Assembly: GCF_000730165.1 (NCBI RefSeq)
Contig: NZ_CP022113.1
Span: forward strand, 372,001 to 436,000
Direction: 5' to 3'
DNA from: Nitrospirillum viridazoti CBAmc
GTDB lineage: Bacteria; Pseudomonadota; Alphaproteobacteria; Azospirillales; Azospirillaceae
DNA length: 64,000 nucleotides
Under the pieces are notes generated by a model, which saw only the letters and a list, made by a program, of their open reading frames with translations, did not search any database and had not been told where the DNA came from. A program made the position numbers and the translations under genes. Shown in pieces: positions 8,644 through 50,471 of this stretch (the stretch's first letter is position 1; every line of letters starts with the position of its first letter).

Positions 8644-8646
8644 GCC

Positions 8647-17586: not shown

Positions 17587-17596
17587 GGAGGGCGGG

Positions 17597-18061: not shown

Positions 18062-18088
18062 CGCGTCACAGCGGGTCATTCTCGCGGA

Positions 18089-18220
18089 TCAGGGACAGTA
18101 CAGGGTCACGCGCTCCGCGCCATCTTCGTTGCGGATGCGGGCGTCGCTGAAACAGTGGCGCACCAGGGAGAAGCTGCGGCCAGACAGGGCCACGGCGTGG
18201 GCATGCGGCCCGCCCCGTCT
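18089..18220 (-). pseudogene. Possible remnant of a gene 3' end
   Basis: On the - strand a short frame ending at 18089 reads as a plausible protein tail (HAVALSGRSFSLVRHCFSDA, then IRNEDGAERVTLYCP and a stop). It has no ATG and loses its protein-like character upstream, where a TACCC-TTTT-GGGTA mini-hairpin lies at 18221-18234. It may be the surviving 3' end of a gene destroyed by rearrangement; a 34-residue GTG-started peptide is an alternative. I do not recognise the family. Confidence 0.3.
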
Positions 18221-18863: not shown

Positions 18864-18885
18864 TCTGATTTGGGGGAGTGGGCTT

Positions 18886-21800
18886 ATGGGCAAGATGCTG
18901 CCGGACGTGCGCAAGGACCTGGATACGCAGGGCCAGGACACGCGGACGTGGCCGTTGCGCGCACGGCCATCGCGCACACTGCTGCTGGCTGGCACCTCCC
19001 TCCTGGCCATGGGCACGGCCCTGACGGCCCCCCGGGCAACGGCGGCGGATACCACCATCACCGGCGGCAGCACGTCGTTCGTGGCGACGCAGTCATCGGG
19101 CAACCTGACCCTCACCAACAGCGGCACCCTCAGCGGCGCCACCGCCCTCAAGTACACCGACGGCACCAGCTTCCTGATCAACCAGGGCCTGATCCAGGGC
19201 AGCATCCGCGGGGCGTATCTGGCCGGCACCCAGGCCGCCGGCTACGTCACGCTGACCACGCTGATGAACACCGGCAGCATCGTCTCCGCCGGCAACGCCA
19301 TCGAAATCGGCCTGGGCAACACCCTGGTCTCGCTGGTCAACAGCGGCATGATCCAAGGCAACCTGCTGCTGGGCGGCGACAGCGCCGTTACCATCTTCGG
19401 CGGCACCGGCGGCGCGGTCGGCACCTTCACCGGCGTGTCCGGCAACCAGGGTACCATCACCAGCAATCTCGCCAACCTGACCCTGGGTGGCGGCGGCTTG
19501 CTGCTGAACGACAATATCAATGTCACCGGCCAGACCCTGGTGAACAGCGGTGCCGGCATCATTCTGGCCAGCATCGTCAGCGTCACCGGCGACTACGCCC
19601 AGACGGGCGGCAGCCTGGCCCTTAACAGCGGCGAACTGGTGGTCAGCGGCGGCGCCACCGTCACCGGCGCCACCGTCACGGCCTCGCTGGCCAGCCTGGC
19701 GGCGGGCGGCAATTACGTGGTGGGCGACACCGTGGGCACGCTGATCGCCGCCGACAGCGGCAGCTACAGCGGCATCACCGGCGCCCTGACCAGCGGCCTC
19801 ACCCTGGCGCTGGTGACGGGGACGGACACGTCCAACCTGCTGGCCCTGGCGGACAGCGACTATATCGGCGGCACGCTGGCCGGCGTGACCAACACCGGCA
19901 GCATCAGCAGCCTGTACGTGGCCGCGACGGGCAGCCTGGGCGGCTTCCGTAACGAGACCACCGGCACCATTTCCAGCCTCGACCTGCACGGCGCCATCGG
20001 CACCCTGGACAACGCCGGCCTGATCCAGGTCAGCGGCTCCAGCGGCTTCAACGCCAACGGCACCATCGGCACGCTGAACAACAGCGGCACCATCACCGGC
20101 AACATCCTCAGCCTGTTCGTCCAGGGCAGCATCGGCCTGCTGCAGAACCTGGCCGGCGCCACCATCGGCGGCAACAGCGTCGAAGCCATCCTGATCGTCA
20201 CCCCCACTCTGCACGGCACGGCCGGCACCGTGGGCACGCTGAGCAACAGCGGCCTGATCAGCGGCAGTGCCGTGGGGGTCGAGGTCGACGGCACCGTCGG
20301 CCTGCTGCGGAACCAGGCCGGCGCCACCATCGCGGGCAACAGCCATGCCATCAATGTCTACGGCGGCATCACCACCCTGACCAATGCCGGTGTCATCCAG
20401 GGCATCGGCAGCGCCATCAACGTCGCCCCCGCCGCCTTCGTCTACGGCACCGTCGGCCTGCTGGAAAACCAGGCCAGCGGCAGCATCGTTTCCTCCAATG
20501 CCGCCGGCGTGGACAACAGCCTTCTCCTCCACACCCTGGTGAACAGCGGCTATATCTCCGGCGGCACCCGGGGCGTCCTCAACACCGGTGCCATTGATGT
20601 CCTGGAAAACCGGGACGGCGGCACCATCACCGTGTCGAACTACAGCGGCCTGACGGCCCTGCGCAACGACGGCAGCATCGGCACGCTGACCAACGCCGGC
20701 CTGCTGGCATCCGACCTCTCCCTGGCCACCCCCGTCGGTGCGGGCATCAGCGTCACCGGCACCGTCGGCCAGCTGATCAACAGCGGCACCATCCTGGGTC
20801 ACTCCGGCGTGGTCGTCAGCGGCACTGTCGACACGCTGGACAACCAGTCCATCGGCACCATCCAGGGCCAGGGCGGTATCGTCATCGGTGTCCAAAGCGG
20901 CGGCACCATCGGCACCTTCATCAACAGCGGCACCCTAACCGGCCGCTATCTCGTCGCCGCCATCGGCAGCAGCGGCGCGCTGGCCGCCATCGGCGGCATT
21001 GCCAACAGCGGCACCATGGTGGTGGGCGCCTCATACCCGACAGGCACCGCCATCCAATTGAGCTATGCCACCATTGGGCAGATCAGCAACAGCGGCACGG
21101 TGGTCGCGGCCAACAGCAGCGTCAATAGCTACATCGTCAGTGCCGACAACAGCACGATCGGCAGCATCGCCAACAGCGGCCTGGTGTCGATCCGGAATGG
21201 CACCTTCGTCGTCAACACCAATGGCAGCATCGGCACTATCAGCAACAGCGGCGTGATCAACGGCGGCAGTGGCGGCGCGCTATCCAACGGCGGGTACGGC
21301 GGGCAGTTTGGCAGGGTTGGAATCTTCGCCAACAGCGGCACCATCACTACCGCCAACGCCGCCATCAGGAACTGGTCCTCCGGCGTCCTCGGCACCCTGG
21401 TGAACAGCGGTACCATCAGTGCCCGCACTGCCCTCTACACCTCCGGTGACTTCGGTACCTTGGTGAACAGCGGCCTGATCGAAGGCGGCATCACCAGCGA
21501 AAACGGCACTGACCTGACCATCCAGGGCGGCGCCGGCGGCACGGTGGGCACCTTCACCGGCCAGGACGGGGTGGCCAAGGGGCTGATCGTCAACCAGATG
21601 GGCGACCTGACCTTCAGCGCCGGCGCGTTGCTGCTGAACGACGATATCAATGCCACCGGCCATACGGTCACCAACGCCGGTGCCAGCCTGCAGGTCGCCA
21701 CCCTGCTCACCATCACCGGCGTCTATGACCAGGCGGCGGGCACCCTGGTGCTGGGCGCGGCCGGCGGCCTGTCGGTCACGGGTGCGGCCATGGTGGGCGG

Positions 21801-39800: not shown

Positions 39801-42800
39801 CAGCCTGTCGGGCGTGTCCTTCATCGCCGGCAACCTGTTGCTGGCCGACGCCATCGATGTCGGCGGCAACACGGTGGTGAACAGCGGCGCCACCCTGACC
39901 ATCGGCGGCACCGTTGCCATCACCGGCAACTACAGCCAGACCGGCGGCGGCCTGATGCTGTCGCTGGGCGGCAGCCAGCTGGCGGTCGGTGGCAGTGCGG
40001 CCCTGACCGGCGGCGTGGTCACCATCACCGGCGCCAGCAGCCTGGCCAACTACACCGTGGGCTCTGCCCTGGCCACCCTGGTGTCCGGTGGCGCGGGATC
40101 CCGCTACACCCTGTCCATCACCAACGATCTGACCGGTTTCGACATCGGTAGCACGGTGGTGGGCAACGCCCTGCTGGCCGTGGCCCACAGCGACTATATC
40201 GGCGCTTCCCTGGGCAGCCTGGCCAACACCGGCACGGTCAGCGCCGTCACGGCCTTGCGCATCGCCAGCAGCGGCTCACTGGGCAGCTTCGCCAACAGCG
40301 GCGTGCTGCTGGGCGGCGTCGACGCCGCGTCCAACCTCGGCACCCTGGGCACGCTGTACAACGCCGGCCTGATAACCGGCACCACCGCCGGCGTGGCCAA
40401 CAGCGGCATGCTGGGCCTCCTGCTCAACGCCGTCGCGGGCACCGTGGCGGGTGGCATCGCCAACCAGGGCGTCTTGGGCCAACTGGCCAACGCCGGCCTC
40501 ATCACCGGTGCCACGGCCATCGCCAACAGCGGGGCCGGCACCATCGCCACCGTCGCCAATACCGGCCTGATCCAGGGTGGCCAGGTGGGGCTGCTGAACG
40601 CCGCCACCATCGGCCTGCTGGACAACAGCGGCACGCTGTCCGGCATCACCGCCCTGCGCAACGCGGCTGGCGGCAGCGTCGGCGGTATCGTCAATAGCGG
40701 CCTGATCCAGGGCGACATCGTCAACCTGGCGGCCGGCGGTCTGACCATCAGCGGCGGCAGCGGCACCCAGGTGGGCACCCTGGCCGGCGGCACCATCACC
40801 AGCACCGGCGCCGACGTGGCCTTCAACGCCGGAACGCTTTTGCTGGCCGACGCCGTCAACGTCACCGGCCATACCCTGGTCAACAGCGGCGCCACCCTGG
40901 TGCTCACCAGCGTCGTCTCCGTCACCGGCAACTATAGTCAGACGGGCGGCGTCCTGGGCCTGACCGCAGGCAGCAGCGGCCTGGCGGTCAGTGGTGCCGC
41001 CACCCTGTCGGGCGGCGTCGTGGCGGCCGCCTACGACGCGGGCGTCAACTACTTCGGCGGGGCCATCGCCACCCTGGTGTCGGCGGCGGGCGGCCTGAGC
41101 GTCTCGGCCTCCATCACCAACACCGTGACGGGCTTGGCCATGGTGACGCGGCTGTCGGGCACCGACCTGACGGCCAGCATCGCCAACGACTACATCGGCG
41201 GCACCTTGGGTAGCCTGACCAACACCGCCGCCCTGGGTGGGCCCACCGCCTTCTACGTGGCGGCGGCGGGCAGCGTCGGCACCCTGGTCAACAACGGCAC
41301 CCTGGCGGGCACCCTCAACGGTCTGGCCGTGGCCGGTGGCCAGATGGGCCAAATCAGCAACGCCGGCCTGATCCGCGGCTCCTCCACCGCCGGTGTGCAG
41401 GTGGGCACGGGCGGCCGCCTCGGCACGCTCAGCAACAGCGGCACCATCGCCTCCGACATTGGCTCGGGCGTGCTGGTCCAGGGCAGCCTGGGCAGCCTGA
41501 CCAACAGCGGCCAGGTGACCGGCGGCGGCGTGGCTTTGGACATCGCCACTGGCGGCATCGTGGGTTCGGTCAGCAACTTGGCCGGCGGCACGCTGGCCGC
41601 CGGCACCGTCGGCGTCCTGGTGGCGTTGGGCGGCACCCTGGGCGGCTTCAGCAACGCCGGTGTCCTGACCGGCGCGCATCTGGTAGGCATTGCCGGTCAG
41701 GCCGGGCTGGTCAACAACAGCGGCACGCTCACCGGCGGCGCCTCCACCGCTTTCCGCATCAGCGGTACGCTCGGTACCTTGGCCAACAGCGGCCTGATCA
41801 CCGCTACCCACGGCGTGCTCAGCGTCACCAGCAGCGGCGTGCTGGGCCTGCTGGCCAACAGCGGCACCATCATCGGCGACATCACCAACGCCGGCGCCCA
41901 GGACCTGACCATCACCGGTGGCGGCACCGTGGCGGGCACCTTCACCGGTGGCACCCTCACCAACCTGGCCAGCAACGTGGTGCTGGCGGGGGGCGGCCTG
42001 GTCTTCAACGACACCGTCAACGTAACGGGCCACACCCTGGTCAACAGCGGCGCCAACGTCCTGCTGTCCAGCACCCTGACGATCACCGGCGCCTACAGCC
42101 AGACCGGCGGCACCCTGGCCCTGGCCGGCAACCATTTGGTGGTCAGCGGTGTCGCCAGCCTCAGCGGCGGCACGGTCAGCACCAGCATCGCGGCGGCCAC
42201 CAACGTCAACTATCTGCAGGGTGACATCCTGGGCACCCTGGTGGTCGGCGGCGCCGGCTCCAGCTACACCGGTGTCTTCACCCAGGTGAACGTGACGGGC
42301 CTAGGGGCGGCCGCCAGCGCCGTGAGCATCGGCGCCGACACCGACCTGGTGGCCACCGTTTCCAACAACTACATCGGCGGCACCCTGTCCACGCTGGGCA
42401 ATGCCGGTACCATCGTTGCCGTCACCGCCCTCTATGTCGGCAGCGGCGGCAGCGTCGGCAGTGTCAGCAACAGCGGCGCGCTGTCGGGCAGCGTGGTGGG
42501 CGTGGTCAACAACGGCACCGTCGGCACCTTGACCAACAGCGGTACCGTCACCGGTTCCGTCGCCGGTGTCGCCAACGCCGGTTCCGTCGGCAGCTTCAGC
42601 AACGACGGCTCGGTTAGCGGCTCCATCGCCGGTGTGGTCAACAGCGGCACCATCGGCACCCTGGGCAATACCGGCACCGTCACCGGCAGCATTACCGGCC
42701 TGGGCAACCAGGCGGGTGCCAGCATCGGCACGCTCAGCAACAGTGGCACTGTCGCCGGCCAGATGGCGCTGAACAACGCCGGCACCATCGAGGTGGTCGT

Positions 42801-45800
42801 CAACAATGGCGCCCTGATCGATGCCGGCGCCCCGACGGCCGCCGGCCTGTACAACACCGGCAACATCGCCACGGTGCTGAGCAGCGGCACCATCCTGGGC
42901 GCCACCTATGGCGTCTACAATGCCGGCACCATCGGCACGCTGGCCAACAGCGGCCTGATCACGGCGCCCACCGCCCTTTATCTCGACACGGGCTCCAGCC
43001 TGGGTGTGCTGGCCAACAGCGGCACCGTCGCCGGCAACATCCTGAACCTGTCGGCCAACACGCTCAACATCATCGGCGGCAGCGGGACGGTGGTGGGTAC
43101 CCTGACCGGCTACACCGCCGGCAGCCAGGGCAGCATCATCAACACCCTTGGCAACGTGAACCTTGCCTCCGGCAACCTGTTGCTGAACGACGCCGTGAAT
43201 GTCGCAGGCCACACCCTGGTCAACAGTGGCGCCTCGGTAATCCTGGACAGCCTGGTCAGCGTCACCGGCGCCTACAGCCAGACGGCCGGCACCCTGACCC
43301 TGACGGATCCTGCCCATGTCGGCCTGGCCGTCAGCGGGACCGCCAGTTTCAGCGGCGGCACGGTTGTCGCCCAGTACAGCGCCACCGGTAACTACCTGGC
43401 GGGCGTGGACACGCTGGTGGCCGGCGGTGTCGGCTCCAGCTACCTCGGCGTGGTGGTCCAGGGCAGCCTCACCGGTCTGGTGGTGAGCCAAGGCGTGGCG
43501 GGCACCAACCTGCTGGCGGTGGTTGGCAACGACTATGTCGGCGGTACCCTGGGCAATCTTTCCAACACCGGCACCCTCACCGCCGCCACGGCTGTGTACA
43601 TCGCGGCCAGCGGCAGCCTGGGCAATCTTTCCAACAGCGGCGCCCTGATCGGCGACCTGATCAACGCCAGCAGCCATGATCTGGTGATCGCGGGTGGCAG
43701 CGGCACGGCAGTGGGCAGCTTCTCGGATGGCACCATCCGCAACAGCCTGTCCAACCTGACCTTCGCGTCGGGCGCGGTCAGCCTGGGCGATGCCATCGAC
43801 GTCACCGGCCATACCGTCAGCAACAGCGGCGCCAACCTCACCCTGGCCAGCGACATCTCCGTCACCGGCGCCTACAGTCAATCGGCGGGCACGCTCGACG
43901 TGGCCGGCCATAGCCTGAACGTCAGCGATGCCGCCAACGTCAGCGGCGGCACGGTCTCCGCCGGTCTCAATGGCACCGGCAATTACCTGGTGGGTGACAG
44001 CGCCACCCTGATCCAGGGCGGTGCCGGTTCCAACTATGCCGGCGCCGTGGTGACCAGCGGTGTCAGCGGCCTGTCGGCGACCGGCACGACCAACGGCACC
44101 AGCCTGCTGGCCGTCGCTGCCAACGACTATATCGGCGGCACTCTGGCCAGCTTGGCCGTCACTGGTAGCCTGACCAACACCGCCGGCGCCACGGCGGTGT
44201 ACATCGCCAGCACGGGCACGCTAGGCACCATCGCCAACAGCGGCACCATCGCGGGCAGCATCGTGAACACCAGCGCCAACGCCCTGGTGTTTACGGGCGG
44301 CACCGGCACGGTCACCGGCACCCTGACGGGGACCGGCGGCATCGGCACGATCACCAGCACCGGCGCCAACGTCACCCTGACCAGCGGCAACCTGCTGCTG
44401 AACGACCACGTGAACGTGGGCAGTGGCACGCTGGTGAACAGCGGCGCCAACGTGCTGCTGACCAACGCCATCGGCGTGACGGGCAACTACAGCCAGTCGG
44501 CGGGCACGCTGGCCATGGGCATCGGCAGCGGCACGGCGGGTGAGCTGTTGGTCAGCGGCAACGCCGCCTTCACCGGCGGCACCGTCGCCGTGACGGCGCT
44601 CTCGGGCAGCAACCTGATCGCGGGTCAGAGCTACACCATCGCCGAGGTGGGCGGGGCCTTGACCACCAGCGGCCTCAGTGCCGCAGCCACGGGCTTCAGC
44701 GCCACGCTGGGCACGGGCGCCAACGGCGCGGCCACCGACCTGCTGCTGACGCTGCTCAGCGACTATGTCAGTGGCACGCTGGGGACGCTGACCAACACCG
44801 GCACGATCAACGCCGCCACGGCGGTGTTGATCACCAGCGCCGGCAGCCTGGGGACCCTGGCCAACAGCGGTGTCCTCATCGGCAACGTGATCAACGCCAG
44901 CGCCAATGACCTGGTGGTCGTCGGTGGTTCCCCAAATGGCGTTAATGGCGGCACGGTGGGCAGCTTCAGCGGCGGCACCATCCGCAACAGCCTGAGCAAC
45001 CTGACCTTCGCCTCGGGTGCCGTCAGCCTGGGCGACGCCATCGACGTAACGGGCCACACGGTCAGCAACAGCGGGGCCAGCCTGACCCTGGCCGGCGACG
45101 TGGCGGTGACGGGCAACTACAGCCAGACGGCGGGCACGTTGGCCGTCGCGGGTCATAGCTTGAGCGTCAGCGGGGCGGCGCAGGTGACGGGCGGCGTGGT
45201 CGATGCCGGGATGACCGGGACGGCCAACTACCTGGTGGGCGACAGCGTCACCCTGATCCGGGGCGGCAACGGCTCGACCTACACCGGGGCCACGGTGGTC
45301 AGCGGCCTGACGGGCCTGGACGCCACCGGCACCACCAGCGGCAGCAACCTGTTGGCCGTGGCGGGCAACGACTACATCGGTGCCAGCCTGGCCACGCTGA
45401 ACGTCACGGGTACCCTGGCCAACAATGCGGGCGGCGCCACGGCGCTGTACATCGCCCGCACGGGCACCTTGGGCAGCCTGGCCAACAGCGGCACCATCCG
45501 TGGCAACATCGTCAACCTGTCGGCGGGTGATCTCAGCATCACCGGTGGGTCCAACGGCGCGGTGGGTGTGTTCACCGGCGGCACCATCCGGAATGCCGGC
45601 AGTAATGTGGTGTTCGCGTCGGGCGCCGTCAGCCTGGGCGACGCCATTGTCGCCACCGGCCACACCGTGGCCAACAGCGGTGCCAGCATCAGCCTGGCCA
45701 GCGACATCAGCGTCACCGGTGCTTACAGCCAGTCGGCGGGCACACTCTCCGTTGCCGGTCATGTGCTGAGCGTCAGCGACGCCGCCAGCGTCAGCGGCGT

Positions 45801-48423
45801 GGTCAACGCCGGCGTCAACGCCACCGGCAACTACATCGTTGGCGACAGCGTCACCCTGATCCAGGGCGGCATCGGCTCCAGCTATACCGGTGCGACTGTC
45901 ACCAGCGGTGTCACCGGCCTCGATGCAACCGGCACCACCAGCGGGACCAACCTGCTGGCGATCGCGGGCAACGATTATGTCGGCGGGACTCTCAACACCC
46001 TGAACGTCACCGGCACGCTGGCCAACACGGCCGGCGGTGCCACGGCGCTGTACATTGCCAGCACGGGCACCCTGGGCAGCCTGGCCAACAGCGGCACCAT
46101 CACCGGCAATGTGGTGAACACCGGTGTCCGGGACCTGACCATCATTGGCGCCACTGGGGGCGGCGGCAATGGCGCGGTGGGCCGCTTCACCGGCGGCACC
46201 ATCACCAGCACCGGGGCCAACGTGGTGTTCGCGTCCGGTGCGGTCAGCCTGGCTGATGCGCTGAACGTCGCCACCCATACCGTCAGCAACGCCGGCGCTG
46301 GCATTGCGCTCGCCAGTGACGTGGCGGTCACGGGCAACTTCGCCCAGAGCAGCGGCACGCTGACCACGGGCGGTCATGTCCTGACCGTCAGCAATGCTGC
46401 CACCGTGACGGGCGGCGTGGTCAATGCCGGTGTCAGTGCCACGGCCAACGTCCTGGCGGGAGACAGCGTCACCCTGATCCGGGGCGGCACCGGCTCCAGC
46501 TACAGCGGTGCCACCGTCACCAGCGGCCTCACCGGCCTGTCGGCCAGTACCGCTGTCAGCGGCAGCAGCCTGATGGCCGTGGCCGGCAACGACTATGTCG
46601 GCGGTAGCCTGGCCAACTTGGCGGTCACCGGCACGCTCAGCAGTCCGACGGCGCTCTATATCGCGGCCACCGGCGCCTTGGGCACCCTGGCCAACAGCGG
46701 CACCATCAGCGGCAACATCACCAACCTGTCGGCCAACGACCTGGTGGTTGCGGGCGGCACCGACAGCGCCCCCGGCACCCTGACGGGCGGCACCATCACC
46801 AATACCCGGTCCGATCTGCGCTTCGTGCGTGGCGTCATGATGCTGAACGGCCGGGTCGATGTCGGCAGCCACAGCGTGGTGAACAACGGGGCGACCCTGC
46901 TGGTGAACAGCGCGGTCAACATCACCGGCAGCTACAGCCAGACGGCCGGCAATCTGGTGGTCGGCGTGTCGTCCACCACCAGCTACGGCAGTCTGGTCAT
47001 CAGCGGCAGCGCCAGCCTGACGGGCGGGTCGGTGACGCTGACGGCGATCAATGGCGGCCAGCTGTCGGCGGGCAGCTACACCATCGCATCGGCCGGCTCC
47101 ACCCTGACGACCAGCAACCTGACCCTGACCGCCACCGGCTACACCGTCACCAGTTCCACCATCACCGCCAACGGCGCTACGGATCTGATCCTGACGCTCA
47201 GCAGCGGCAGCGGCGGGAGCACCGGCCCCACGGGTCCCACCGGCCCGGCCACGCCCAGCACCCAGTACACGGCGGTGGGCCTGGCGGCGGGCGGTCCGGG
47301 GGTGGGCACCGGCCGGGCGCTGGACGTCATCGCCAACAGCGACGGCGCGGCGGCCCAGGCCTTCCAGACGGCGGTGCTGACCCGCCTGTCCAAGCTGTCG
47401 GGCGAGGCGCAGCAGCTGGCGGTGATCCAGCTGTCGCCCAGCCAGCTGACGCCGCAGATCAACACCTTCTCCGTCACGCCCTCCACCAACGCCATCAGCC
47501 TGCACCAGCAGCATGCGGCGGCGTACATGGATGGCCCAATGGGGGATGTAAACGGGAAGGGGGCGGCGGCCGGCTCCGACGGCCAGCAAGGCGCGGTGTG
47601 GGGCGAGATCCTGGGCGGCGGCGTTCTGCGCGGCAACAACGCCGACGCGGCGGGCTACAGCGGCACCACGGCCGGCCTGGTGCTGGGCGTGGACTGGTAC
47701 GCCAATGACACGGTCATGGCGGGCCTGGCCTTCAGCTGGCTGAACGGTTCGGTCAACGGCGAGGGCACCGCCGCCGGCAGCCAGACCAAGGCGGCCAGCT
47801 ACCAGCTGACGGCCTACAGCGTCTGGCGACCGGATTGGGCGGACCAGCGCCTGTCGGTCGAGGGCCAGGCCAGCTTCGGCTACAACCACTACGACCAGCG
47901 CCGCTGGATCGGTTTCCTGGGCGCCCGCGCCAACGCCAACTATGGCGGGGAGCAGTATCTGGGCAAGGTGACGGTGGGCTACGACCTGCCGGTCTCCGCC
48001 AGCTTCACCCTGACGCCGCAGGCCAGCCTGCGGGCCGTGCGCCTGACCAACCACGCCTATGACGAGCATGATGCCGGCGTGGCCAACATGGCGGTGGGCG
48101 CCTTGAAGGTGGACAACCTGACGCAGGAGCTGGGCGCCAAGCTGTCGGGTAATATAGGGACGGCCTGGGGCCGGCTGCTGCCGGACCTGCGTCTGGCCTG
48201 GGTGCACGACTATCTGAACGGCCCCATCGCCACCACCAGCGTCCTGGCCGGCACCAGCTTCGTCAGCAGCACCGGCCGCACCGCCGCCGATGGTCTGGGC
48301 ATCGGCGTGGGGGCCACCCTGGATCAGGGCGACGGCTTCAAGCTGCGGCTGGAATACTCCGGCGAGTTGCGCCGCGACTATCAGAGCCACGCCGGGGTTC
48401 TGCGCGCCACCTTCGACTTCTGA
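18886..48423 (+). CDS. Giant autotransporter adhesin, 9845 residues
   Basis: One uninterrupted frame encodes a type V secreted protein of roughly 0.9 MDa. A 30-residue charged N-region is followed by a hydrophobic segment (residues 31-48) and a likely cleavage after ATA at 53. Residues about 54-9440 are a Gly/Ser/Thr/Asn/Ala-rich beta-helix passenger built from coils of the type LVNSGTISG, with 28 copies of a DYIGG-type marker. A short GPTGPTGPA linker (near 47227-47250) leads to a helical linker (AQAFQTAVLTRLSKL). Residues about 9550-9845 are the C-terminal autotransporter beta-barrel (WGEILGG, AGLVLGVDWY, LRLEYSGE), ending in phenylalanine. The ATG at 18886 has GGGGGAG 7 bases upstream. I saw no cysteine. 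The passenger would cross the outer membrane through its own barrel and act in adhesion or aggregation; the ligand is unknown. The gene stands alone, with hairpins and AT-rich DNA upstream. Confidence 0.93.
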   Translation: MGKMLPDVRKDLDTQGQDTRTWPLRARPSRTLLLAGTSLLAMGTALTAPRATAADTTITGGSTSFVATQSSGNLTLTNSGTLSGATALKYTDGTSFLINQGLIQGSIRGAYLAGTQAAGYVTLTTLMNTGSIVSAGNAIEIGLGNTLVSLVNSGMIQGNLLLGGDSAVTIFGGTGGAVGTFTGVSGNQGTITSNLANLTLGGGGLLLNDNINVTGQTLVNSGAGIILASIVSVTGDYAQTGGSLALNSGELVVSGGATVTGATVTASLASLAAGGNYVVGDTVGTLIAADSGSYSGITGALTSGLTLALVTGTDTSNLLALADSDYIGGTLAGVTNTGSISSLYVAATGSLGGFRNETTGTISSLDLHGAIGTLDNAGLIQVSGSSGFNANGTIGTLNNSGTITGNILSLFVQGSIGLLQNLAGATIGGNSVEAILIVTPTLHGTAGTVGTLSNSGLISGSAVGVEVDGTVGLLRNQAGATIAGNSHAINVYGGITTLTNAGVIQGIGSAINVAPAAFVYGTVGLLENQASGSIVSSNAAGVDNSLLLHTLVNSGYISGGTRGVLNTGAIDVLENRDGGTITVSNYSGLTALRNDGSIGTLTNAGLLASDLSLATPVGAGISVTGTVGQLINSGTILGHSGVVVSGTVDTLDNQSIGTIQGQGGIVIGVQSGGTIGTFINSGTLTGRYLVAAIGSSGALAAIGGIANSGTMVVGASYPTGTAIQLSYATIGQISNSGTVVAANSSVNSYIVSADNSTIGSIANSGLVSIRNGTFVVNTNGSIGTISNSGVINGGSGGALSNGGYGGQFGRVGIFANSGTITTANAAIRNWSSGVLGTLVNSGTISARTALYTSGDFGTLVNSGLIEGGITSENGTDLTIQGGAGGTVGTFTGQDGVAKGLIVNQMGDLTFSAGALLLNDDINATGHTVTNAGASLQVATLLTITGVYDQAAGTLVLGAAGGLSVTGAAMVGGLVQADLAGMATANFLVGDTVATLVHADGGLVWSGSLGRSALGGHLAVGDGTTGTDLMALAASDYIGGTYGTLSIGGGTLLSAPTALYIAGTGTLGALANSGTIAGDITNDSARDLTILGGAGLTIGTLTGSSLTNQGTIASTLANVVLGGGNLALNDAVHVGTGTLVNNGANLTLSTLVNVSGNYNQTTGGLELGGSGTLAVSGAASITGGSLVSGRPLSATGNYLAGTILDTLVTGGAGSSYDGVTVTNNSAVVGGIGGIVSGDALLLGATGNYIGGTYGSLANTGTLSGAFGLVVGNLGTLDTFSNSGLISVTGMTGIGIYDRGGSLGQLDNSGTIIAHRGVQLDTGATVGTIANSGSIGASASAIELYNARAGLITNTGTIAGTATFGDGIILLQGASAETVDNAGVISETGYGGNGIVNYASSTIGTVLNSGTIIAAGLGIGNFSSSASIGTLVNSGLISGGTGAILNGDTATIGTLINTGTLRAANGSGYALANHNGAVIGTLINAGVIAGAVTGALYSSDTIGTDFTIQGGDTGTVGTFTAWDMSAKGMIYNTLGNVTFTSGALLLHDDIYVPGYSVTNVAAALALDTVVTITGAYSQLGGTLSMGTAGGLSVTGSAGLAGLYQVTLSGNAGANYVVGDAVGTVVQADGGVSYSGSLTGTALDGHVVLVNGTTSNQLLALAINDYIGGSYGTISVTGLLTAPTALYIAGTGSLGALANSGTIAGDIVNLGTADLTISGGTGGVVGTLRGASLTSQGTITSTLANVVLAGGSLLLNDAVNVGTGTLANAGATVSLSTIVSVTGNYSQATGTLALATGAELVVSGAASISGGTVSVARQSTLGNYLVGSTYATLVAGGAGSSYTNVAVTTGSHALGLAGTVSNNGLLLGATGNYIGGSLGSLANNGTLAGHVGLSIVQNGQLGTFTNNGLISIGGGRAVENRGSIGLLENTSIGTITGTMGLYSGNNSTLSTLANAGLISGTYAVSLEYAQVTLLANSGTLEALAGAGVPVALNLSNSTINTLVNSGLVSTDGYGYGVNLNFATINTLVNQGTIAAAIGIRMAYASLTALGNSGTISGTTAIQNSYGGGIGTLVNSGTIMGVRAYLGFANASLGTLVNSGLIRGGIYNGSTDYNDTVAGDLTIQGGTGGTVGTFTGQDGVSTGLIFNSLSNLVFASGALLLNDDVRANAHTVSNTGAALTLVNTINLTGAYSQSAGTLVLDGAAQLNVIGVASIAGQVAASVAGDSAANYLVSDTVGTLVQATGGLTYAGTFVNHGALDGHAQLTVGTSGSELLALATTDYIGGSYGTISVTGLLTGPTALYIAGTGSLGALVNTGTIAGDIVNASANTLSITGGTSGTVGTLTGGSLTNQGTITSTLANVVLAGGSLLLNDAVNVGTGTLANAGAAVSLSTIVSVTGNYSQATGTLALGTGAELVVSGAASIGGGTVAAAALSDTGNYLAGSIYGTLVAGGAGSDYTGATVTGSAIPGMGSTVTGNNLALFATGNYIGASYGSLSNSGTLAGAVALQVGGTGSLGTFSNSGLVTGAYRPILNYNTLGLLENQAGGTITVTAAGTLHQDTAAIYNGQFSSIGTITNAGLIAVANDPGDFSVYQIYAISNNSGTIGQITNSGTITGFNAIFSSGTGNVIGTIDNQGVISGRANINLAFSRVGLVTNSGTLSGYGTTSAGLVQISYATVGTIANSGLMAADHNGNAISNTYGTIGTVLNQGTIRISGSGTAINNYGIPGTIGTIVNSGTILADNVAIQEAYGAALGTVINTGTIAAGVVIRSYGNSGLGTVANSGLIRGNLMNGDATGAWTGQVDTAVGDLTLLGGTGTLVGTFTGLTGKGLIDNRVSNLSIAGGNLLLNDDILATGHSVINSGAAITLGGAITVTGTYAQSAGTLVVSSANTLQADSATVTGGQIGLDASGNYIVGQARTVIGGATGAYGGATLNGTIGTGSAIVLGTLVQSGGALLAQFSSDYIGGSLVTLTNSGTITSAFPGIVVASTGSVGTMTNDGAVIGTQQAVALGGVIDTLVNNGTISAISAIGLTGTVGSVLNTGVVRGAIALFGDSTTRFANAGTITGAYNSFAGISYAGLMAASSIGTLVNSGTINAQYALLMVGSQGGASSIGTLINSGVIAGTIVNGNSGVLGFLPNDTVASDLTIQGGGNGTVGTFTGQTGNGLIQNKLSNLVFSGGSLLLNDDVDVTGHTALNSGASLTLVDTIDVTGTYVQGSAGTLVVGKGGQLAIDGQATIAGQLRAGVATDNFLPGQQATLVTGGLGSDYSAATIASNLAHLALTNSVTNNAVVVTAQNYYIGGSLGADITNTGTVSAATAVYIAGGATAVGTLVNSGVITGDIIDDRAGASLLLAGGTGVGTFTGGTITHTLGDIHVTQGTIRLNDSVNAGTGALSIDSPAFVTLGGTVAVTGTLRMAGGLLIGTTTGLLTADSATVTGRVLTDALGNYRAGDTPTLVQATTADYGAATLASLFGLSGSVAQDGGNLVVRYLNDYLGGGLATLNNAGTLTSGGYGVYVAATGSIGTLSNSGVLGGVTAGVVGNGGTIATLVNTGTINAAYALGLGGGATLGTLVNSGVIAGTIVNGDNNLIGLGVDTVAANLSIQGGSGGLVGTFTGRNLTAKGSILSRLSDLLFTSGNLWLNDDIDATGHTVGNLGADVTLTSAITVTGAYTQAAGGTLVVGTSGRLSVTDAATVAGTVVAGLATENATLGQVSTLVAGGSGSDYSAAHVATVTGMGVTTSISGGSLLGIHTNYYVGGSLGSLANSGSISAATILYIAGTGTLDTLTNSGTIAGNIVNRSAHTLSISGGAGGASGTFTGGTITNTASDLALVSGDLALADAVNVAGHTLVNSGANVTVAGAVSVTGDYGQSAGILLLRPGTDSLNVSGNASLTGGTVAMAGFSVTGNYFAGTLGTLVHAGGTLMTGAAITADGVGNLNIASSVTGGNLLALIGNDYIGGTLGSLVNTDTIISRTALYVATSGSVGSLANNGTLTGQYAGLFTEGSIGTLVNTATISQGGGTFSSAIGASVGLRNTGVIGSLSNSGLISAANTGLNSQGSIATLSNSGTITATHFGLRNHSASGNIGVIDTLTNSGWINGGIGGVVQNAGGVGLLDNSGSISGNNFAVAVNGGTIGTLLNSGTLSSSSAGVALTNRGSIAILANSGLIGGSGNAITIDSNSALGLLANSGVIAGNIQNNATRDLTIQGGDTLTGTFTGLNGGRGQIDNTVSTVVFSAGNVLLNDDIDATGHAVLNTGAAVTLASAARITGDYGQSGGTLSLNTTNTLGASGAISISGGYVQVNDLAATVNYIHTTLGVLATGSGASDYSGARYLNTVDGVAVGGVAANGTLTGVVLNDYIGTTYATLANSADIQATLGAAQLYVAVTGSLDGYTNTGTLHGGGTDLVHVGGTVGTISNSGILNAFSKAIHLAGGSVATLSNTGGIFANTGVLVDAAGTIGVLSNAGTIWSQHTALYNLGGIGSLANTGSITTLVSGGTIGLLDNSGSITAIQLGVSINGTSPTAWIGTLLTSGRLGGGDTGVSIATGGTIALLSVAADGLITGSRYGVYSDQSIGTLANEGTIFGQQAGINNNGMGSIGLLTNDGTIQAQSGYGINNSNTGSIGTLINTGLIGATGGGVGVSNTGGTIARLVNSGTILGVGSSAAAISNDGGTLGTLVNSGLIRAEAPLGTGIYGGSIGLLSIAGGGQVIGAQGVYAGEMNTLANSGTIQGSTIGVRADTLDTLVNDGIIQGGTLTAGMTAGQGIIYNNAVGLLRNSGTISGGYAGVAAAGTTGTILNSGSILSRFGAVNVNGLDLLNNNGLLSGGTAVFSNSGVGSLVNTGTVVGGTVALSGAFGVIDNAGLIQGPVAARFSNQVIGFTNSGIVAGDIVATIGDLSITGGSGTHVGTFTGYAANTQGTITVTGGTLVLAGGNVALNDQVQASVVNAGANLTIASAVTIAGAYTQAGGTLQLNTATPLQVADQATIAGGVRVGQATANFTVNQTTTLVSAAAGSDYSAATVGGLAGMDVAGTVDGAGRLIAAFRNDYIGGSLLTLSNTGSISANTGVYVAGTGSLGTLVNTDRLFGTLAAVSIAAGGVLDVLDNEQTVDGNVINDGNHGLTIVGNTSQASSFQNGTIRSRGADVVLAAGRLSMGDVVDVGALTLRNTGATILSNAPLNVVGNYRQTAGELDVIAGSGALRASGNVDLAGQVLVYAGTANILAGDVSTIAQAGGTLGVSGATVQGWNLSITSAVSGSSLLATAHTDYLGASATSVVNTANIDGTSVAVYVAASATIGTVTNQGTLSARSNTAVQVGGTIGTLANTGLIAGQDNALSISGRLDTLANAGTIAGDILNATSGALVITGGSTGTVGTVTGYAGGRGTITNVLSGLTFAAGNLLVNDDIDAAGQTVTNSGATLTLGSGTITGAFAQTGGTLSIMSLAVSDAVSLTGGVLVAQGVTASGNYLASTLGTLVTAGAASSYAGVTLASDLTGLNVVGQTMGNDLLLVANNDYIGGTLATLTNSGTITAAAAVYIAATGSLGTLINTGTLSGDIRNLSANALAIAGNTAGGTGLLTGGTIRNTQSDLTFTEGALRLEDAIDVTGHTVVNSGANLTIGGTVAVAGNFSQTGGSLLMDLYGSQLTVSGSVAMTGGALTITGASNLANYTVGSALSTLVSGGAGANYAGLSITTDLTGFDIGSSIAGNALVAMAFSDYIGGTLGTLNNTGTISGVVTGLYVAGTGSLGTFTNTGAITTSSRAVAISPYGTAGRVDTLVNQGGITGQTAVFVGQGGILGILVNSGTLAGTGYAAIDNFAGTIGLIQNSGTIASSYPYSALANNWGAGIGTVSNTGMLQGLYNGGTIGLVSIGTAGTMHGWFTGLANAGTLAAVINDGQISGPIGVRVGGSNGNAGGGSLGTLTNAGTISGTSHGVDNMVSGALSPTIARVDNSGLITSANGAAIFNEGSASALGTLGTLANSGTIQGVVGLANDGTLGTLLNGGTLAGNAAALTIGTLGTLGYFRNDGLVAGDIVNLAARDLTINNAGSIGTFTGYGAGTQGTIRNTGGNVVFASGALTLNDAIDVGSHTVVNSGIALTLAGTVSITGNYAEAGGTVTMAPGNQLAVSGVASISGAVFSLTGQTATGNYLAGTLGTVVAGGAGSDYSGTSLTAGYQGVAALSNGGNLVAVATSDYIGGSLASAGNSDTIVSSLASSFLTVASTGTLGSFTNSGRLTGGVFQVDVAGVIGTFVNAGSLSGNSLAVHVDTIGSVGALSNSGMIGTAGNQVGIAGTLGLLSNSGTMGGVSVGGTGTLRTVDNSGRLASVLVALGGRLDSLVNTGWMGSLGASGLVTLISNGGTIGGGSTGINLTQASIGHLSNTGTISAAVAVAVDGSSTIGTLSNTGWISSLGDSGTIGILDNAGSITELDVSGRVLSLLNSGSIGGNANGIYLAQGGTIASLSISAGGVLAGTQLGLQSEERIGTLTNDGLIQGVSAGINNRRTTSTIDLLNNRGTIWATGSTGFAINNAGTIGTLLNSGLISGGLATGTGIYGGSIGLLSITSGGQVIGAQAVYAGVMNTLANSGTIQGSTIGVRADTLDTLVNDGMIQGGTLTAGMTAGQGVVYNNAIGLLRNSGTISGGYAGVAAAGTTGTILNSGSIVSRFGAVNVNGLDLLNNSGLLSGGTAVFSNSGVGSLVNTGTVVGGTVALSGAFGVIDNAGLIQGPVAARFGSQVAGFSNSGIVAGDIVATIGDLSITGGSGTHVGTFTGYAANTQGTITVTGGNLVFAGGGVWLNDQVAGSVVNAGSDLILTSIVSISGAYSQVSGTLDLSRGAGQLAVADAASITGGTIVASVSAGANYLAGTLGTLVAGGVGSTYTGATIVTAVTGLASSGLTAGGDLLLMADNDYIGGTLATLTNSGAVTAATALYIAASGNLGTLVNSGTLTGNIRNLTAHDLVVVGGPGGGNGGGVVGTLIGGTIVNSLSGVSFIAGNLLLADAIDVGGNTVVNSGATLTIGGTVAITGNYSQTGGGLMLSLGGSQLAVGGSAALTGGVVTITGASSLANYTVGSALATLVSGGAGSRYTLSITNDLTGFDIGSTVVGNALLAVAHSDYIGASLGSLANTGTVSAVTALRIASSGSLGSFANSGVLLGGVDAASNLGTLGTLYNAGLITGTTAGVANSGMLGLLLNAVAGTVAGGIANQGVLGQLANAGLITGATAIANSGAGTIATVANTGLIQGGQVGLLNAATIGLLDNSGTLSGITALRNAAGGSVGGIVNSGLIQGDIVNLAAGGLTISGGSGTQVGTLAGGTITSTGADVAFNAGTLLLADAVNVTGHTLVNSGATLVLTSVVSVTGNYSQTGGVLGLTAGSSGLAVSGAATLSGGVVAAAYDAGVNYFGGAIATLVSAAGGLSVSASITNTVTGLAMVTRLSGTDLTASIANDYIGGTLGSLTNTAALGGPTAFYVAAAGSVGTLVNNGTLAGTLNGLAVAGGQMGQISNAGLIRGSSTAGVQVGTGGRLGTLSNSGTIASDIGSGVLVQGSLGSLTNSGQVTGGGVALDIATGGIVGSVSNLAGGTLAAGTVGVLVALGGTLGGFSNAGVLTGAHLVGIAGQAGLVNNSGTLTGGASTAFRISGTLGTLANSGLITATHGVLSVTSSGVLGLLANSGTIIGDITNAGAQDLTITGGGTVAGTFTGGTLTNLASNVVLAGGGLVFNDTVNVTGHTLVNSGANVLLSSTLTITGAYSQTGGTLALAGNHLVVSGVASLSGGTVSTSIAAATNVNYLQGDILGTLVVGGAGSSYTGVFTQVNVTGLGAAASAVSIGADTDLVATVSNNYIGGTLSTLGNAGTIVAVTALYVGSGGSVGSVSNSGALSGSVVGVVNNGTVGTLTNSGTVTGSVAGVANAGSVGSFSNDGSVSGSIAGVVNSGTIGTLGNTGTVTGSITGLGNQAGASIGTLSNSGTVAGQMALNNAGTIEVVVNNGALIDAGAPTAAGLYNTGNIATVLSSGTILGATYGVYNAGTIGTLANSGLITAPTALYLDTGSSLGVLANSGTVAGNILNLSANTLNIIGGSGTVVGTLTGYTAGSQGSIINTLGNVNLASGNLLLNDAVNVAGHTLVNSGASVILDSLVSVTGAYSQTAGTLTLTDPAHVGLAVSGTASFSGGTVVAQYSATGNYLAGVDTLVAGGVGSSYLGVVVQGSLTGLVVSQGVAGTNLLAVVGNDYVGGTLGNLSNTGTLTAATAVYIAASGSLGNLSNSGALIGDLINASSHDLVIAGGSGTAVGSFSDGTIRNSLSNLTFASGAVSLGDAIDVTGHTVSNSGANLTLASDISVTGAYSQSAGTLDVAGHSLNVSDAANVSGGTVSAGLNGTGNYLVGDSATLIQGGAGSNYAGAVVTSGVSGLSATGTTNGTSLLAVAANDYIGGTLASLAVTGSLTNTAGATAVYIASTGTLGTIANSGTIAGSIVNTSANALVFTGGTGTVTGTLTGTGGIGTITSTGANVTLTSGNLLLNDHVNVGSGTLVNSGANVLLTNAIGVTGNYSQSAGTLAMGIGSGTAGELLVSGNAAFTGGTVAVTALSGSNLIAGQSYTIAEVGGALTTSGLSAAATGFSATLGTGANGAATDLLLTLLSDYVSGTLGTLTNTGTINAATAVLITSAGSLGTLANSGVLIGNVINASANDLVVVGGSPNGVNGGTVGSFSGGTIRNSLSNLTFASGAVSLGDAIDVTGHTVSNSGASLTLAGDVAVTGNYSQTAGTLAVAGHSLSVSGAAQVTGGVVDAGMTGTANYLVGDSVTLIRGGNGSTYTGATVVSGLTGLDATGTTSGSNLLAVAGNDYIGASLATLNVTGTLANNAGGATALYIARTGTLGSLANSGTIRGNIVNLSAGDLSITGGSNGAVGVFTGGTIRNAGSNVVFASGAVSLGDAIVATGHTVANSGASISLASDISVTGAYSQSAGTLSVAGHVLSVSDAASVSGVVNAGVNATGNYIVGDSVTLIQGGIGSSYTGATVTSGVTGLDATGTTSGTNLLAIAGNDYVGGTLNTLNVTGTLANTAGGATALYIASTGTLGSLANSGTITGNVVNTGVRDLTIIGATGGGGNGAVGRFTGGTITSTGANVVFASGAVSLADALNVATHTVSNAGAGIALASDVAVTGNFAQSSGTLTTGGHVLTVSNAATVTGGVVNAGVSATANVLAGDSVTLIRGGTGSSYSGATVTSGLTGLSASTAVSGSSLMAVAGNDYVGGSLANLAVTGTLSSPTALYIAATGALGTLANSGTISGNITNLSANDLVVAGGTDSAPGTLTGGTITNTRSDLRFVRGVMMLNGRVDVGSHSVVNNGATLLVNSAVNITGSYSQTAGNLVVGVSSTTSYGSLVISGSASLTGGSVTLTAINGGQLSAGSYTIASAGSTLTTSNLTLTATGYTVTSSTITANGATDLILTLSSGSGGSTGPTGPTGPATPSTQYTAVGLAAGGPGVGTGRALDVIANSDGAAAQAFQTAVLTRLSKLSGEAQQLAVIQLSPSQLTPQINTFSVTPSTNAISLHQQHAAAYMDGPMGDVNGKGAAAGSDGQQGAVWGEILGGGVLRGNNADAAGYSGTTAGLVLGVDWYANDTVMAGLAFSWLNGSVNGEGTAAGSQTKAASYQLTAYSVWRPDWADQRLSVEGQASFGYNHYDQRRWIGFLGARANANYGGEQYLGKVTVGYDLPVSASFTLTPQASLRAVRLTNHAYDEHDAGVANMAVGALKVDNLTQELGAKLSGNIGTAWGRLLPDLRLAWVHDYLNGPIATTSVLAGTSFVSSTGRTAADGLGIGVGATLDQGDGFKLRLEYSGELRRDYQSHAGVLRATFDF
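32935..33642 (+). repeat. Near-identical internal duplication, copy A
   Basis: About 708 bases encoding GIYGGSIGLLSI through YAANTQGTITVTGG. It matches 38497-39204 at a constant offset of 5562 bases (1854 codons) with only scattered substitutions and no visible insertion or deletion. Most surrounding modules differ far more from each other, so this pair is a recent duplication or gene-conversion product. Confidence 0.85.
38497..39204 (+). repeat. Near-identical internal duplication, copy B
   Basis: The partner of 32935-33642. After this block the sequence resumes similarity to the part of the gene after 35100 (marker at 39574 like that at 35401, marker at 40192 like that at 36007). Copy B therefore looks like a copy of 32.9-36.0 kb from which about two modules were lost. 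Confidence 0.8.
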
Positions 48424-49130: not shown

Positions 49131-50471
49131 ATGGTGTGGGATGAGCGGCGGGGCGATCGGCGGGGGCAGACCAGCGACACGCGCCGGCCGGCGGATATCG
49201 ACTACGCCCGTGTCATCCACTCGGCCAGCTTCCGGCGGCTGCAGGGCAAGACCCAGATCCTGAATTTGGGCGACAGCGACTTCTACCGCACCCGCCTGAC
49301 CCACTCGCTGGAGGTGGCGCAGATTGCCGGCGGCATCGTGCGCCAGTTCCAGCACCAGTTCACTGATCACCCCGCCCATCCGCATCTGCCGGACATCGCC
49401 CGCATCCAGGCCATCGGCTGCACCCACGATCTGGGCCACCCGCCCTTCGGCCATGGCGGGGAGGTGGCGCTGAACTACTGCATGCGCGACCATGGCGGTT
49501 TCGAAGGCAATGGCCAGACGCTGCGCGTCCTGTCCCGGCTGGAGAAGTTTCCCGAGGGGGCCGGTGCCAACCTGACGCGCCGCACCCTTCTGGGTGTGCT
49601 GAAATACCCCGTGGCCTACCATGAGGCCGCCAATCCCGCGGTGCGGCCCGGTCTGGACGCCAGGGCGACCACTATCCGGATCATCGACCGCAAGGCGTCC
49701 AAGCCGCCCAAATGCTATATGGACAGCGAGGCGGACGTGGTCGACTGGATCCTGGCGCCCCTGAGCACGTCCGACCGGGACGCCTTCCGCGCCTATGTCC
49801 GCCAGGACGGCAGGCATCACAAGCCCCTGCACAAGTCGTTCGACTGCAGCATCATGGACCTGGCCGACGACATCGGTTTCGGCGTGCATGATCTGGAGGA
49901 CGCGCTGGCCCTGCGGCTGATAGGGCGGGATGACTTCACGACCCGTGTGCCCCGTGAACGGTGCGCCGCCTTCCTGGACACGCTGCGCGGGCCCTATGCC
50001 CAGGAACTCGGCGGCGATGCTTACGCGGCCTTCGTCGACAGGCTGTTCGGGGAGGAGGACCAGCGCAAGCTGTTCATCGGCCGCATGGTCCACTACCTGA
50101 TCGCCAGCTGCCATATCGACACGCGGGAAGCGTTCCAGGAACCGCTGATCCGCTATCGCGCCGCCATGGACGACCGTGCGCGGGGCTTCCTGGACGCGCT
50201 GAAGCAGGCGGTGATGGACATCGTCATCCTCAGCCCGGCCGTGCAGCAACTGGAGTTCAAGGGCCAGAAGATGGTGGTGTCGGTGTTCGAGGCCATGGCG
50301 TCCGAGCCCGCAAATTTCCTGCCGCGCGAGGTCTATGCCCGTTATCGGCAGGAAGGGGACAGCCCCCGGGTCATCTGCGACCACATTTCCGGCATGACCG
50401 ACAACTTCCTGATGAAGACCTACGACCGGCTTTTCAGCCCGCACATGGGTTCCGTTTTCGACCAGCTGTGA
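49131..50471 (+). CDS. dgt: dGTP triphosphohydrolase (HD-domain dGTPase)
   Basis: A 446-residue HD-superfamily dNTPase that hydrolyses dGTP to deoxyguanosine and triphosphate. The metal-binding set is visible: H58 in RTRLTHSLEV, H99-D100 in CTHDLGHPPFGHGGE and the distal acidic motif MDLADDIGFGVHDLEDA (242-258). The N-terminal WDERRGDRRG and RVIHSASFRRLQGKTQ match the roughly 440-residue class, which includes homologues reported to deplete dGTP during phage infection, rather than the 505-residue E. coli Dgt. A housekeeping role in dNTP balance is equally possible. GAGGG precedes the ATG. The stop faces the convergent SPFH gene across 20 bases. Confidence 0.92.
   Translation: MVWDERRGDRRGQTSDTRRPADIDYARVIHSASFRRLQGKTQILNLGDSDFYRTRLTHSLEVAQIAGGIVRQFQHQFTDHPAHPHLPDIARIQAIGCTHDLGHPPFGHGGEVALNYCMRDHGGFEGNGQTLRVLSRLEKFPEGAGANLTRRTLLGVLKYPVAYHEAANPAVRPGLDARATTIRIIDRKASKPPKCYMDSEADVVDWILAPLSTSDRDAFRAYVRQDGRHHKPLHKSFDCSIMDLADDIGFGVHDLEDALALRLIGRDDFTTRVPRERCAAFLDTLRGPYAQELGGDAYAAFVDRLFGEEDQRKLFIGRMVHYLIASCHIDTREAFQEPLIRYRAAMDDRARGFLDALKQAVMDIVILSPAVQQLEFKGQKMVVSVFEAMASEPANFLPREVYARYRQEGDSPRVICDHISGMTDNFLMKTYDRLFSPHMGSVFDQL

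What the first reader, a model, noticed from the sequence alone, without database searches (positions are those of the whole stretch)
18886..48423. A 9845-residue single-frame autotransporter adhesin
Seen: one frame of 29.5 kb without stops, a signal peptide, a beta-helix passenger of about 9,400 residues and an autotransporter barrel ending in Phe. Known: type Va autotransporters usually have 500-3500 residues, so this would be among the largest type V proteins. A fully extended beta-helix of this size would reach micrometre scale. It poses open questions about periplasmic transit and folding through one barrel.
Basis: partly seen in the sequence, partly recalled or inferred. Interest (0 to 1): 0.85.

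Follow-up and report, generated by a model that had tools for sequence, protein, structure and literature searches.

The report
Giant modular autotransporter surface protein
A soil and plant-associated type of bacterium (Nitrospirillum) carries one very long gene for a single protein of 9,845 building blocks that probably forms a stiff fibre about 0.2 micrometres long on the cell surface; it is real and among the largest of its kind, but a slightly larger one was already described in 2012.

Summary
Confirmed: one uninterrupted 9,845-codon frame at 18886..48423 (+), coding throughout (GC3 about 0.92, no N), with a signal-peptide-like N terminus and a C-terminal PF03797 barrel (E 2e-45). An internal stretch is predicted at pLDDT 91 as a right-handed beta-helix like Vag8, UpaB and pertactin. 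It is not an assembly artefact: a syntenic orthologue in a separate assembly is collinear over 8,077 residues (88% identical, dN/dS 0.42), and indels remove whole ~22-24-residue coils. The passenger has 29 copies of a ~165-residue module; the last, just before linker and barrel, belongs to a distinct specialised clade. The genome (Nitrospirillum) has ten related long autotransporters (1,967-9,845 aa, about 2% of the genome), so this is the largest of a genus-wide family. Corrections: BigE (10,429 aa, PMC3419190) is larger, so 500-3,500 is the wrong yardstick; the helix would be about 170-200 nm, not micrometre scale; "adhesin" is inferred. Verdict: a new, extreme member of type Va autotransporters. 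It sharpens the question of how a 9,400-residue chain crosses one barrel and folds; repeated modules as folding waypoints is the most novel, unproven reading.

The parts
18886..48423 (+). Giant autotransporter gene, 9,845 codons plus stop
   Evidence: orthologues
18872..18878 (+). Shine-Dalgarno-like GGGGGAG before the ATG
   Evidence: read directly from sequence
18886..19044 (+). Signal-peptide-like N terminus, residues 1-53 (AxA before 54)
   Evidence: read directly; same signature in paralogues; start MGKM(L) conserved in orthologues
19045..47244 (+). Passenger, residues 54-9453, predicted right-handed beta-helix
   Evidence: AF2 of residues 1100-1760 pLDDT 91.2, VIA Z 27.4 to Vag8, 25.2 UpaB, 22.3 pertactin
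19447..19938 (+). Module 1 (~165 aa)
   Evidence: profile score 187.7 bits
21577..22083 (+). Module 2
   Evidence: 193.5 bits
22207..22710 (+). Module 3
   Evidence: 202.6 bits
23458..23958 (+). Module 4
   Evidence: 200.5 bits
24082..24579 (+). Module 5
   Evidence: 213.1 bits
25300..25800 (+). Module 6
   Evidence: 206.8 bits
25924..26418 (+). Module 7
   Evidence: 214.9 bits
27355..27849 (+). Module 8
   Evidence: 174.6 bits
28363..28848 (+). Module 9
   Evidence: 168.9 bits
28963..29439 (+). Module 10
   Evidence: 112.2 bits
29734..30219 (+). Module 11
   Evidence: 178.6 bits
30328..30822 (+). Module 12
   Evidence: 211.5 bits
31534..32037 (+). Module 13
   Evidence: 200.8 bits
33616..34092 (+). 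Module 14
   Evidence: 189.1 bits
34267..34749 (+). Module 15
   Evidence: 164.3 bits
35008..35490 (+). Module 16
   Evidence: 214.1 bits
35599..36099 (+). Module 17
   Evidence: 216.7 bits
37036..37530 (+). Module 18
   Evidence: 209.5 bits
39178..39663 (+). Module 19
   Evidence: 205.8 bits
39787..40281 (+). Module 20
   Evidence: 212.1 bits
40789..41277 (+). Module 21
   Evidence: 207.9 bits
41950..42456 (+). Module 22
   Evidence: 204.8 bits
43126..43620 (+). Module 23
   Evidence: 224.3 bits
43729..44223 (+). Module 24
   Evidence: 231.8 bits
44344..44850 (+). Module 25
   Evidence: 160.1 bits
44974..45471 (+). Module 26
   Evidence: 229.1 bits
45580..46074 (+). Module 27
   Evidence: 221.4 bits
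46195..46680 (+). Module 28
   Evidence: 219.5 bits
46789..47244 (+). Terminal module (29th, lacks the last ~16 positions), at the pre-barrel (autochaperone) position
   Evidence: 95.8 bits; own clade with the terminal copies of 11 related proteins, support 1.0; model aligns with IcsA C-terminal fragment 5ke1 Z 12.8 and Ssp Z 15.9
47245..47595 (+). Gly/Pro/Thr linker and helical segment, residues 9454-9570
   Evidence: AF2 helices at residues 9472-9548 (low confidence)
47596..48360 (+). PF03797 autotransporter barrel (profile match); barrel runs to Phe at 48418-48420
   Evidence: E 2.1e-45; 12 strands in the model; VIA Z 18.6 AaaA, 17.6 NalP
32862..33721 (+). Internal duplicate block, copy 1
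   Evidence: 92% DNA identity to copy 2; homogenised within the gene
38427..39283 (+). Internal duplicate block, copy 2
42513..48423 (+). C-terminal 5.9 kb shared with the 6,659-aa paralogue at 92% DNA identity (tiles up to 99.7%)

Best explanation
The gene encodes a giant classical (type Va) autotransporter. Inferred from the established pathway: the precursor crosses the inner membrane through Sec, its C-terminal 12-strand barrel is inserted by BAM, and the passenger is exported C terminus first and folds on the outside into one right-handed beta-helix. The finished rod of about 420 coils would be about 170-200 nm long and stay anchored by the barrel, presenting its N-terminal end far beyond the cell surface. 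It is the largest of a family of long, related autotransporters in Nitrospirillum that grow and shrink by gain and loss of whole coils and modules and exchange their C-terminal parts by gene conversion. The likeliest role is long-range adhesion or cell-cell contact (for example plant root, soil particle or neighbouring cell). Shown here: frame, conservation, selection, barrel, predicted helix, module array, family. Inferred: secretion route, rod length in vivo, adhesion.
For: Intact frame and coding composition. Barrel: PF03797 E 2.1e-45, Foldseek E 4.5e-5 to EspP and 6e-5 to BrkA, VIA Z 18.6 AaaA. Helix: AF2 pLDDT 91.2, pTM 0.86; VIA Z 27.4 over 348 residues to Vag8, then UpaB and pertactin. 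Orthologue with the same upstream T6SS gene in an independent assembly: 88% identity over 8,077 residues, dN/dS 0.42; a second, 80%. Indels between orthologues of 22, 23, 24, 45, 52 residues (this gene) and mainly 22, 24, 42-47, 202, 203 residues (8,561-aa paralogue and its orthologue) equal whole coils or modules. dN/dS falls from the N terminus toward the barrel in three of four pairs (Spearman -0.37, -0.75, -0.45), as expected of a variable distal tip on a conserved shaft. 29 modules, while shuffles reach at most 24.6 bits. Cysteine-free, strongly acidic chain.
Against: No expression, surface localisation or adhesion data. The barrel part of the AF2 model is of low confidence, so the barrel rests mainly on the profile match. 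Orthologue contigs end inside the gene, so the last ~1,590 residues are confirmed only in the window's own assembly and by the paralogue. One related gene (G006) has a frame break in its assembly. The dN/dS gradient is absent in the fourth pair, and the N-terminal alignment in the 80% pair is gappy. No known adhesion domain found.
Confidence: 0.78

Rival explanations
1. Assembly artefact: the length comes from a mis-joined or expanded repeat array.
For: Gene contains repeats, including an 860-bp pair at 92% identity, and the last 5.9 kb resembles a paralogue at 92%; relatives' contigs break inside this gene family.
Against: Copies are otherwise only about 70-85% alike at the DNA level; the collinear orthologue in another assembly has both copies of the 860-bp pair and differs only by small coil-sized gaps over 8,258 residues; nine further frames above 5,000 aa, some running to contig ends, occur in separate assemblies of the genus.
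Confidence: 0.04
2. Decaying or unexpressed gene kept open by chance and high GC.
For: A related gene in another species has a frame break; no expression data.
Against: No stop in 9,845 codons, GC3 constant, dN/dS 0.42 over 8,077 codons with many tiles at 0.1-0.3; barrel and terminal module strongly conserved across paralogues.
Confidence: 0.04
3. A surface-architecture or spacer protein (self-associating, matrix or shield) rather than an adhesin for a foreign target.
For: Low-complexity acidic Gly/Thr/Ala/Asn helix that also resembles the self-associating passenger Ag43 (VIA Z 17); no recognisable binding domain; many paralogues per genome.
Against: The distal N-terminal part evolves fastest, which is more typical of a part that meets a changing partner.
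Confidence: 0.35
4. Contact-promoting adhesin working with the neighbouring type VI secretion system, holding target cells near the injector.
For: tssH lies 4 kb upstream here and in two other Nitrospirillum assemblies; T6SS cluster at window 1-15 kb.
Against: A similar giant in G006 has no tssH in the 8 kb upstream; none of the paralogues was tested for such linkage; a rod of 0.2 micrometres would keep cells apart rather than close.
Confidence: 0.06

Closest known systems
BigE (10,429 aa betaproteobacterial autotransporter, Celik et al. 2012, PMC3419190)
   Same: Giant single-chain type Va autotransporter, one barrel, size reached by replication of a passenger unit (eight-fold) plus further repeats
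   Different: Related to betaproteobacterial proteins, BrkA-like passenger with a ~309-aa unit and 69-aa repeats and an EstA-type barrel; here 29 copies of a ~165-aa module. Sequences were not compared (BigE not held)
Other Nitrospirillum giants (8,561; 6,659; 6,010; 5,768; 5,384 aa in this genome)
   Same: Same module, same linker and barrel type, about 3 modules per 1,000 residues
   Different: Shorter; different order and number of modules and coil blocks
Fap2 of Fusobacterium nucleatum (3,786 aa)
   Same: Long beta-helical rod on an autotransporter barrel, ligand bound at the distal tip; 45-50 nm by cryo-EM (PMC12397386)
   Different: About 2.6 times smaller; no repeated module family of this kind described there; known ligands
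Vag8, UpaB, pertactin, Ag43 passengers
   Same: Right-handed parallel beta-helix; VIA Z 27.4, 25.2, 22.3, 17.4
   Different: Far shorter, sequence identity 15% or lower
AIDA-I, EspP, BrkA, NalP, AaaA translocator domains
   Same: 12-strand barrel with helical plug; PF03797 type
   Different: About 11-18% identity in the structural alignments; no SPATE-type cleavage claimed here

Membership tests
Type Va (classical) autotransporter | C-terminal PF03797 beta-domain at the very end of the chain | tested here: met
   E 2.1e-45, full 1-255 profile; Foldseek and VIA matches
Type Va (classical) autotransporter | Sec-type N-terminal signal peptide | tested here: inconclusive
   Signature read by eye and shared with paralogues; no predictor available
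Type Va (classical) autotransporter | Passenger and barrel in one polypeptide | tested here: met
   Single frame 18886..48423
Type Va (classical) autotransporter | Beta-helical passenger (most members) | tested here: met
   AF2 pLDDT 91 for residues 1100-1760, VIA Z to 27; rest by homology of modules and coils
Type Va (classical) autotransporter | Surface display through its own barrel | not testable with these tools
   needs experiment
Type Vb two-partner secretion (FhaB-like) | Passenger without own barrel, separate TpsB | tested here: not met
   Barrel is fused to the passenger
Type Vc trimeric autotransporter | Short trimeric YadA anchor (4 strands per chain) | tested here: not met
   Full PF03797 barrel with 12 predicted strands instead
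Pfam AC_1 autochaperone domain (PF18883) | Match to the AC_1 profile | tested here: not met
   No match in the gene; the genome's best places are elsewhere and below cut-off. The terminal module holds the same position and aligns with the IcsA C-terminal fragment
BigE / BrkA-like group | Sequence similarity to the BigE passenger unit or EstA-type barrel | not tested

The most novel reading that the evidence does not exclude
The repeated ~165-residue module, never more than about 550 residues apart and homologous to the specialised copy at the autochaperone position, serves as a periodic folding waypoint (restart or ratchet site) that lets one barrel export and fold a 9,400-residue helix; the roughly constant module density (about 3 per 1,000 residues) of the long members would reflect that need.
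Probability: 0.2. Interest if true: 0.75.

Novelty: new member of a known kind. Interest (0 to 1): 0.45.

Why it matters
It is one of the longest intact autotransporters on record by the literature found here and comes with a natural length series (about 2,000 to 9,800 residues) sharing the same barrel, terminal module and repeat units within one genus and even one genome. That makes a standing question testable: how a very long unfolded chain survives the periplasm and crosses one narrow barrel, and whether folding outside needs nucleation only at the C terminus or again along the way. It also shows how such proteins evolve: by whole coils and modules, with gene conversion of the C-terminal part.

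Tried and rejected
hmmscan of half-proteins found nothing, probably because of composition correction; short pieces gave the barrel. phmmer of the barrel against the PDB found nothing. PF18883 (AC_1) does not match the gene. Weak module hits (12-22 bits) were dropped: shuffled sequence reaches 24.6. Nucleotide search in PLSDB gave no match. No tRNA, Rfam family or sigma-70-like promoter near the gene. I first took contig G001:C3 / L009 as the orthologue's C terminus; it may equally belong to the paralogue, because both share that end, and its downstream DNA does not match this window, so it is not used as proof. Paper searches for Nitrospirillum autotransporters and for larger autotransporters found only BigE. 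Antisense ORFs up to 1,900 aa inside the gene are shadows of the high GC3.

Full report
What was checked. The reported frame exists exactly at 18886..48423 on the + strand: 9,845 codons and a stop. GC by codon position is about 0.58/0.55/0.92 in every tile, so the whole length behaves as coding DNA; the other two + frames of the same DNA hold 75 and 356 stops. A GGGGGAG stands at a normal distance before the ATG. The protein starts with a basic stretch, a hydrophobic stretch and an AxA site; paralogues show the same signature. It has no cysteine and 17 lysines.

Where it is. The window lies at 372001-436000 of contig 4 of a 7.38-Mb, four-contig assembly. The nearest named relatives in the genome collection are Nitrospirillum amazonense and N. 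iridis, with barrel identity up to 96%, so the organism is a Nitrospirillum; species not determined. The gene stands alone between a type VI secretion cluster (tssA, sheath, tssEFG, tssH) and a dGTPase gene.

Barrel. The last 340 residues match PF03797 over its full length (E 2.1e-45) and TIGR01414 (E 5e-22). The AF2 model of residues 8899-9845 has a confident passenger (about 90) and a poorly scored barrel, which nevertheless shows a helical segment and 12 strands and is closest to autotransporter translocators (EspP, BrkA: Foldseek E 4.5e-5 to 6.5e-5; AaaA Z 18.6, NalP 17.6).

Passenger. Residues 1100-1760 are predicted at mean pLDDT 91.2. VIA-align puts autotransporter passengers first: Vag8 Z 27.4 (348 residues, rmsd 3.2), UpaB 25.2, pertactin 22.3 and 21.6; plain Foldseek gave the same kinds of protein, but no E-value under 0.001. 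So a right-handed parallel beta-helix is well supported for this stretch and by homology for the rest. The NSG-like motif occurs 195 times against 27 in shuffles, mostly 21-24 residues apart; indels between orthologues are mostly of the same size or twice it. I take 22-24 residues as one coil.

Length. About 9,400 residues at 22.5 per coil and 0.48 nm per coil (textbook beta-strand spacing) give about 200 nm. Independently, Fap2 (beta-helix modelled as residues 242-2698) measures about 45 nm (PMC12397386), scaling to about 170 nm.

Modules. A profile built from the gene finds 29 strong copies (95-232 bits) of a ~165-residue module, 28 full and one terminal; shuffled sequence reaches at most 24.6 bits. 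Between them lie linkers of 36-41 residues or blocks of coils of up to about 550. The terminal copy directly precedes the linker and barrel. In twelve related proteins the terminal copies form one clade (support 1.0), 64% identical to each other but 37% to internal copies of their own protein: a position-specific, specialised unit. Its part of the model aligns with the C-terminal fragment of IcsA (5ke1, Z 12.8) and with Ssp (Z 15.9), though not with the Pfam autochaperone profile.

Family. Ten autotransporters of 1,967-9,845 aa in this genome contain at least one strong copy of the module; summed, about 53,000 residues, 160 kb, 2.2% of the genome (my addition). Eight of them carry 5-29 strong copies; the 3,352- and 2,119-aa proteins have a single one. 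In the other species of the genus open frames of 8,529, 8,144, 8,107, 8,048, 6,934 and 6,158 aa occur. The module was found in 11 of 81 family genomes (3 of 13 genera), in only the own genome of 289 drawn from the class at a strict cut-off, and in Sphingomonas echinoides (L016). Among about 80 barrel relatives in 398 genomes drawn from the phylum, the longest frame outside this genome was 5,541 aa (an incomplete census).

Independent confirmation. In G001 the orthologue sits behind the same tssH (99% identical protein) and runs 8,107 residues to the contig end; 88% identity over 8,077 aligned residues, dN/dS 0.42, gaps of 22, 23, 24, 45 and 52 residues. G003 has another, 80% identical, also behind tssH, also to the contig end. 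G006 has a related gene of about 30.4 kb that carries one frame break in its assembly; whether that is real or an error is unknown.

Evolution. dN/dS is highest in the N-terminal part (0.8-1.0 in the first 600-1,000 residues of this gene; 0.6-0.9 in the first 2,000 of the 8,561-aa paralogue) and falls toward the barrel in three of four pairs, not in the fourth. Because passengers emerge C terminus first (PMC5895577), the N terminus is the distal tip. The last 5.9 kb are 92% identical to the 6,659-aa paralogue, with tiles at 99% or more, and the two internal copies of an 860-bp block are more alike within this gene (91.9%) than to their orthologues (84.8 and 90.4%): gene conversion.

Mechanism. 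The Sec, BAM and vectorial-folding steps follow from the known pathway, not from data here. Published work proposes nucleation at a stable C-terminal core, helped by a barrel loop, and notes that a folded C terminus alone does not suffice to drive folding of the N terminus of an isolated passenger (PMC5895577). In a passenger about ten times longer, repeated modules could act as further nucleation points. For: a density of about 3 per 1,000 residues in the long members, homology to the terminal copy. Against: internal copies have diverged strongly from the terminal one, shorter members have lower density (0.3-2.5), and constant density may simply reflect growth by module duplication. Hence probability 0.2.

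Known kinds. It meets every conclusively tested feature of type Va autotransporters; types Vb and Vc are excluded by the fused full-size barrel. BigE, 10,429 aa, built by eight-fold repetition of a passenger unit, is the direct precedent (PMC3419190). So this is a new, extreme member of a known kind, interesting mainly as the top of a length series within one genus.

Noticed in passing
window 3120-14906 (+): Type VI secretion cluster: tssA, sheath small and two large-subunit genes in a row (4857-6353 and 6353-7804, the second scoring lower), tssE, tssF, tssG, tssH; a Ser/Thr-kinase-like gene at 1858-3144.
   Followed up: partly
window 15046-18150: Several ORFs between tssH and the giant gene without any Pfam or NCBIfam match (16202-17152, 15046-15720, 17597-18061); this stretch differs between species (G003 matches in pieces). 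Could be T6SS cargo or immunity; not tested.
   Followed up: no
window 49131-50471 (+): dGTPase matching the 'anti-phage deoxyguanosine triphosphatase' model well above cut-off (E 3e-163).
   Followed up: no
window 53505-64000 (-): Non-ribosomal peptide synthetase (two adenylation domains, runs off the window) with a TauD-like dioxygenase and a cyclic-peptide-type ABC exporter: probable small peptide or siderophore cluster.
   Followed up: no
G006:C1:1804158-1834485 (L079-L081): Related giant of about 30.4 kb in another Nitrospirillum with one frame break separating 8,529- and 1,919-residue frames; G006:C2 shows a similar split (1,472 and 5,853). Real decay, phase variation or sequencing error is open.
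   Followed up: partly
G000:C3:924237-958528 (L048, L049): Two giant paralogues (5,384 and 3,656 aa) lie side by side on the same strand.
   Followed up: no
G001:C5:256794-264044: Two adjacent autotransporter frames of identical length (2,062 aa), apparently a recent tandem duplication (or one frame repeated by the assembly).
   Followed up: no
L016 (Sphingomonas echinoides): A 3,650-aa autotransporter with ten strong copies of the same module and a 44% identical barrel outside the family: horizontal transfer or an older origin.
   Followed up: partly
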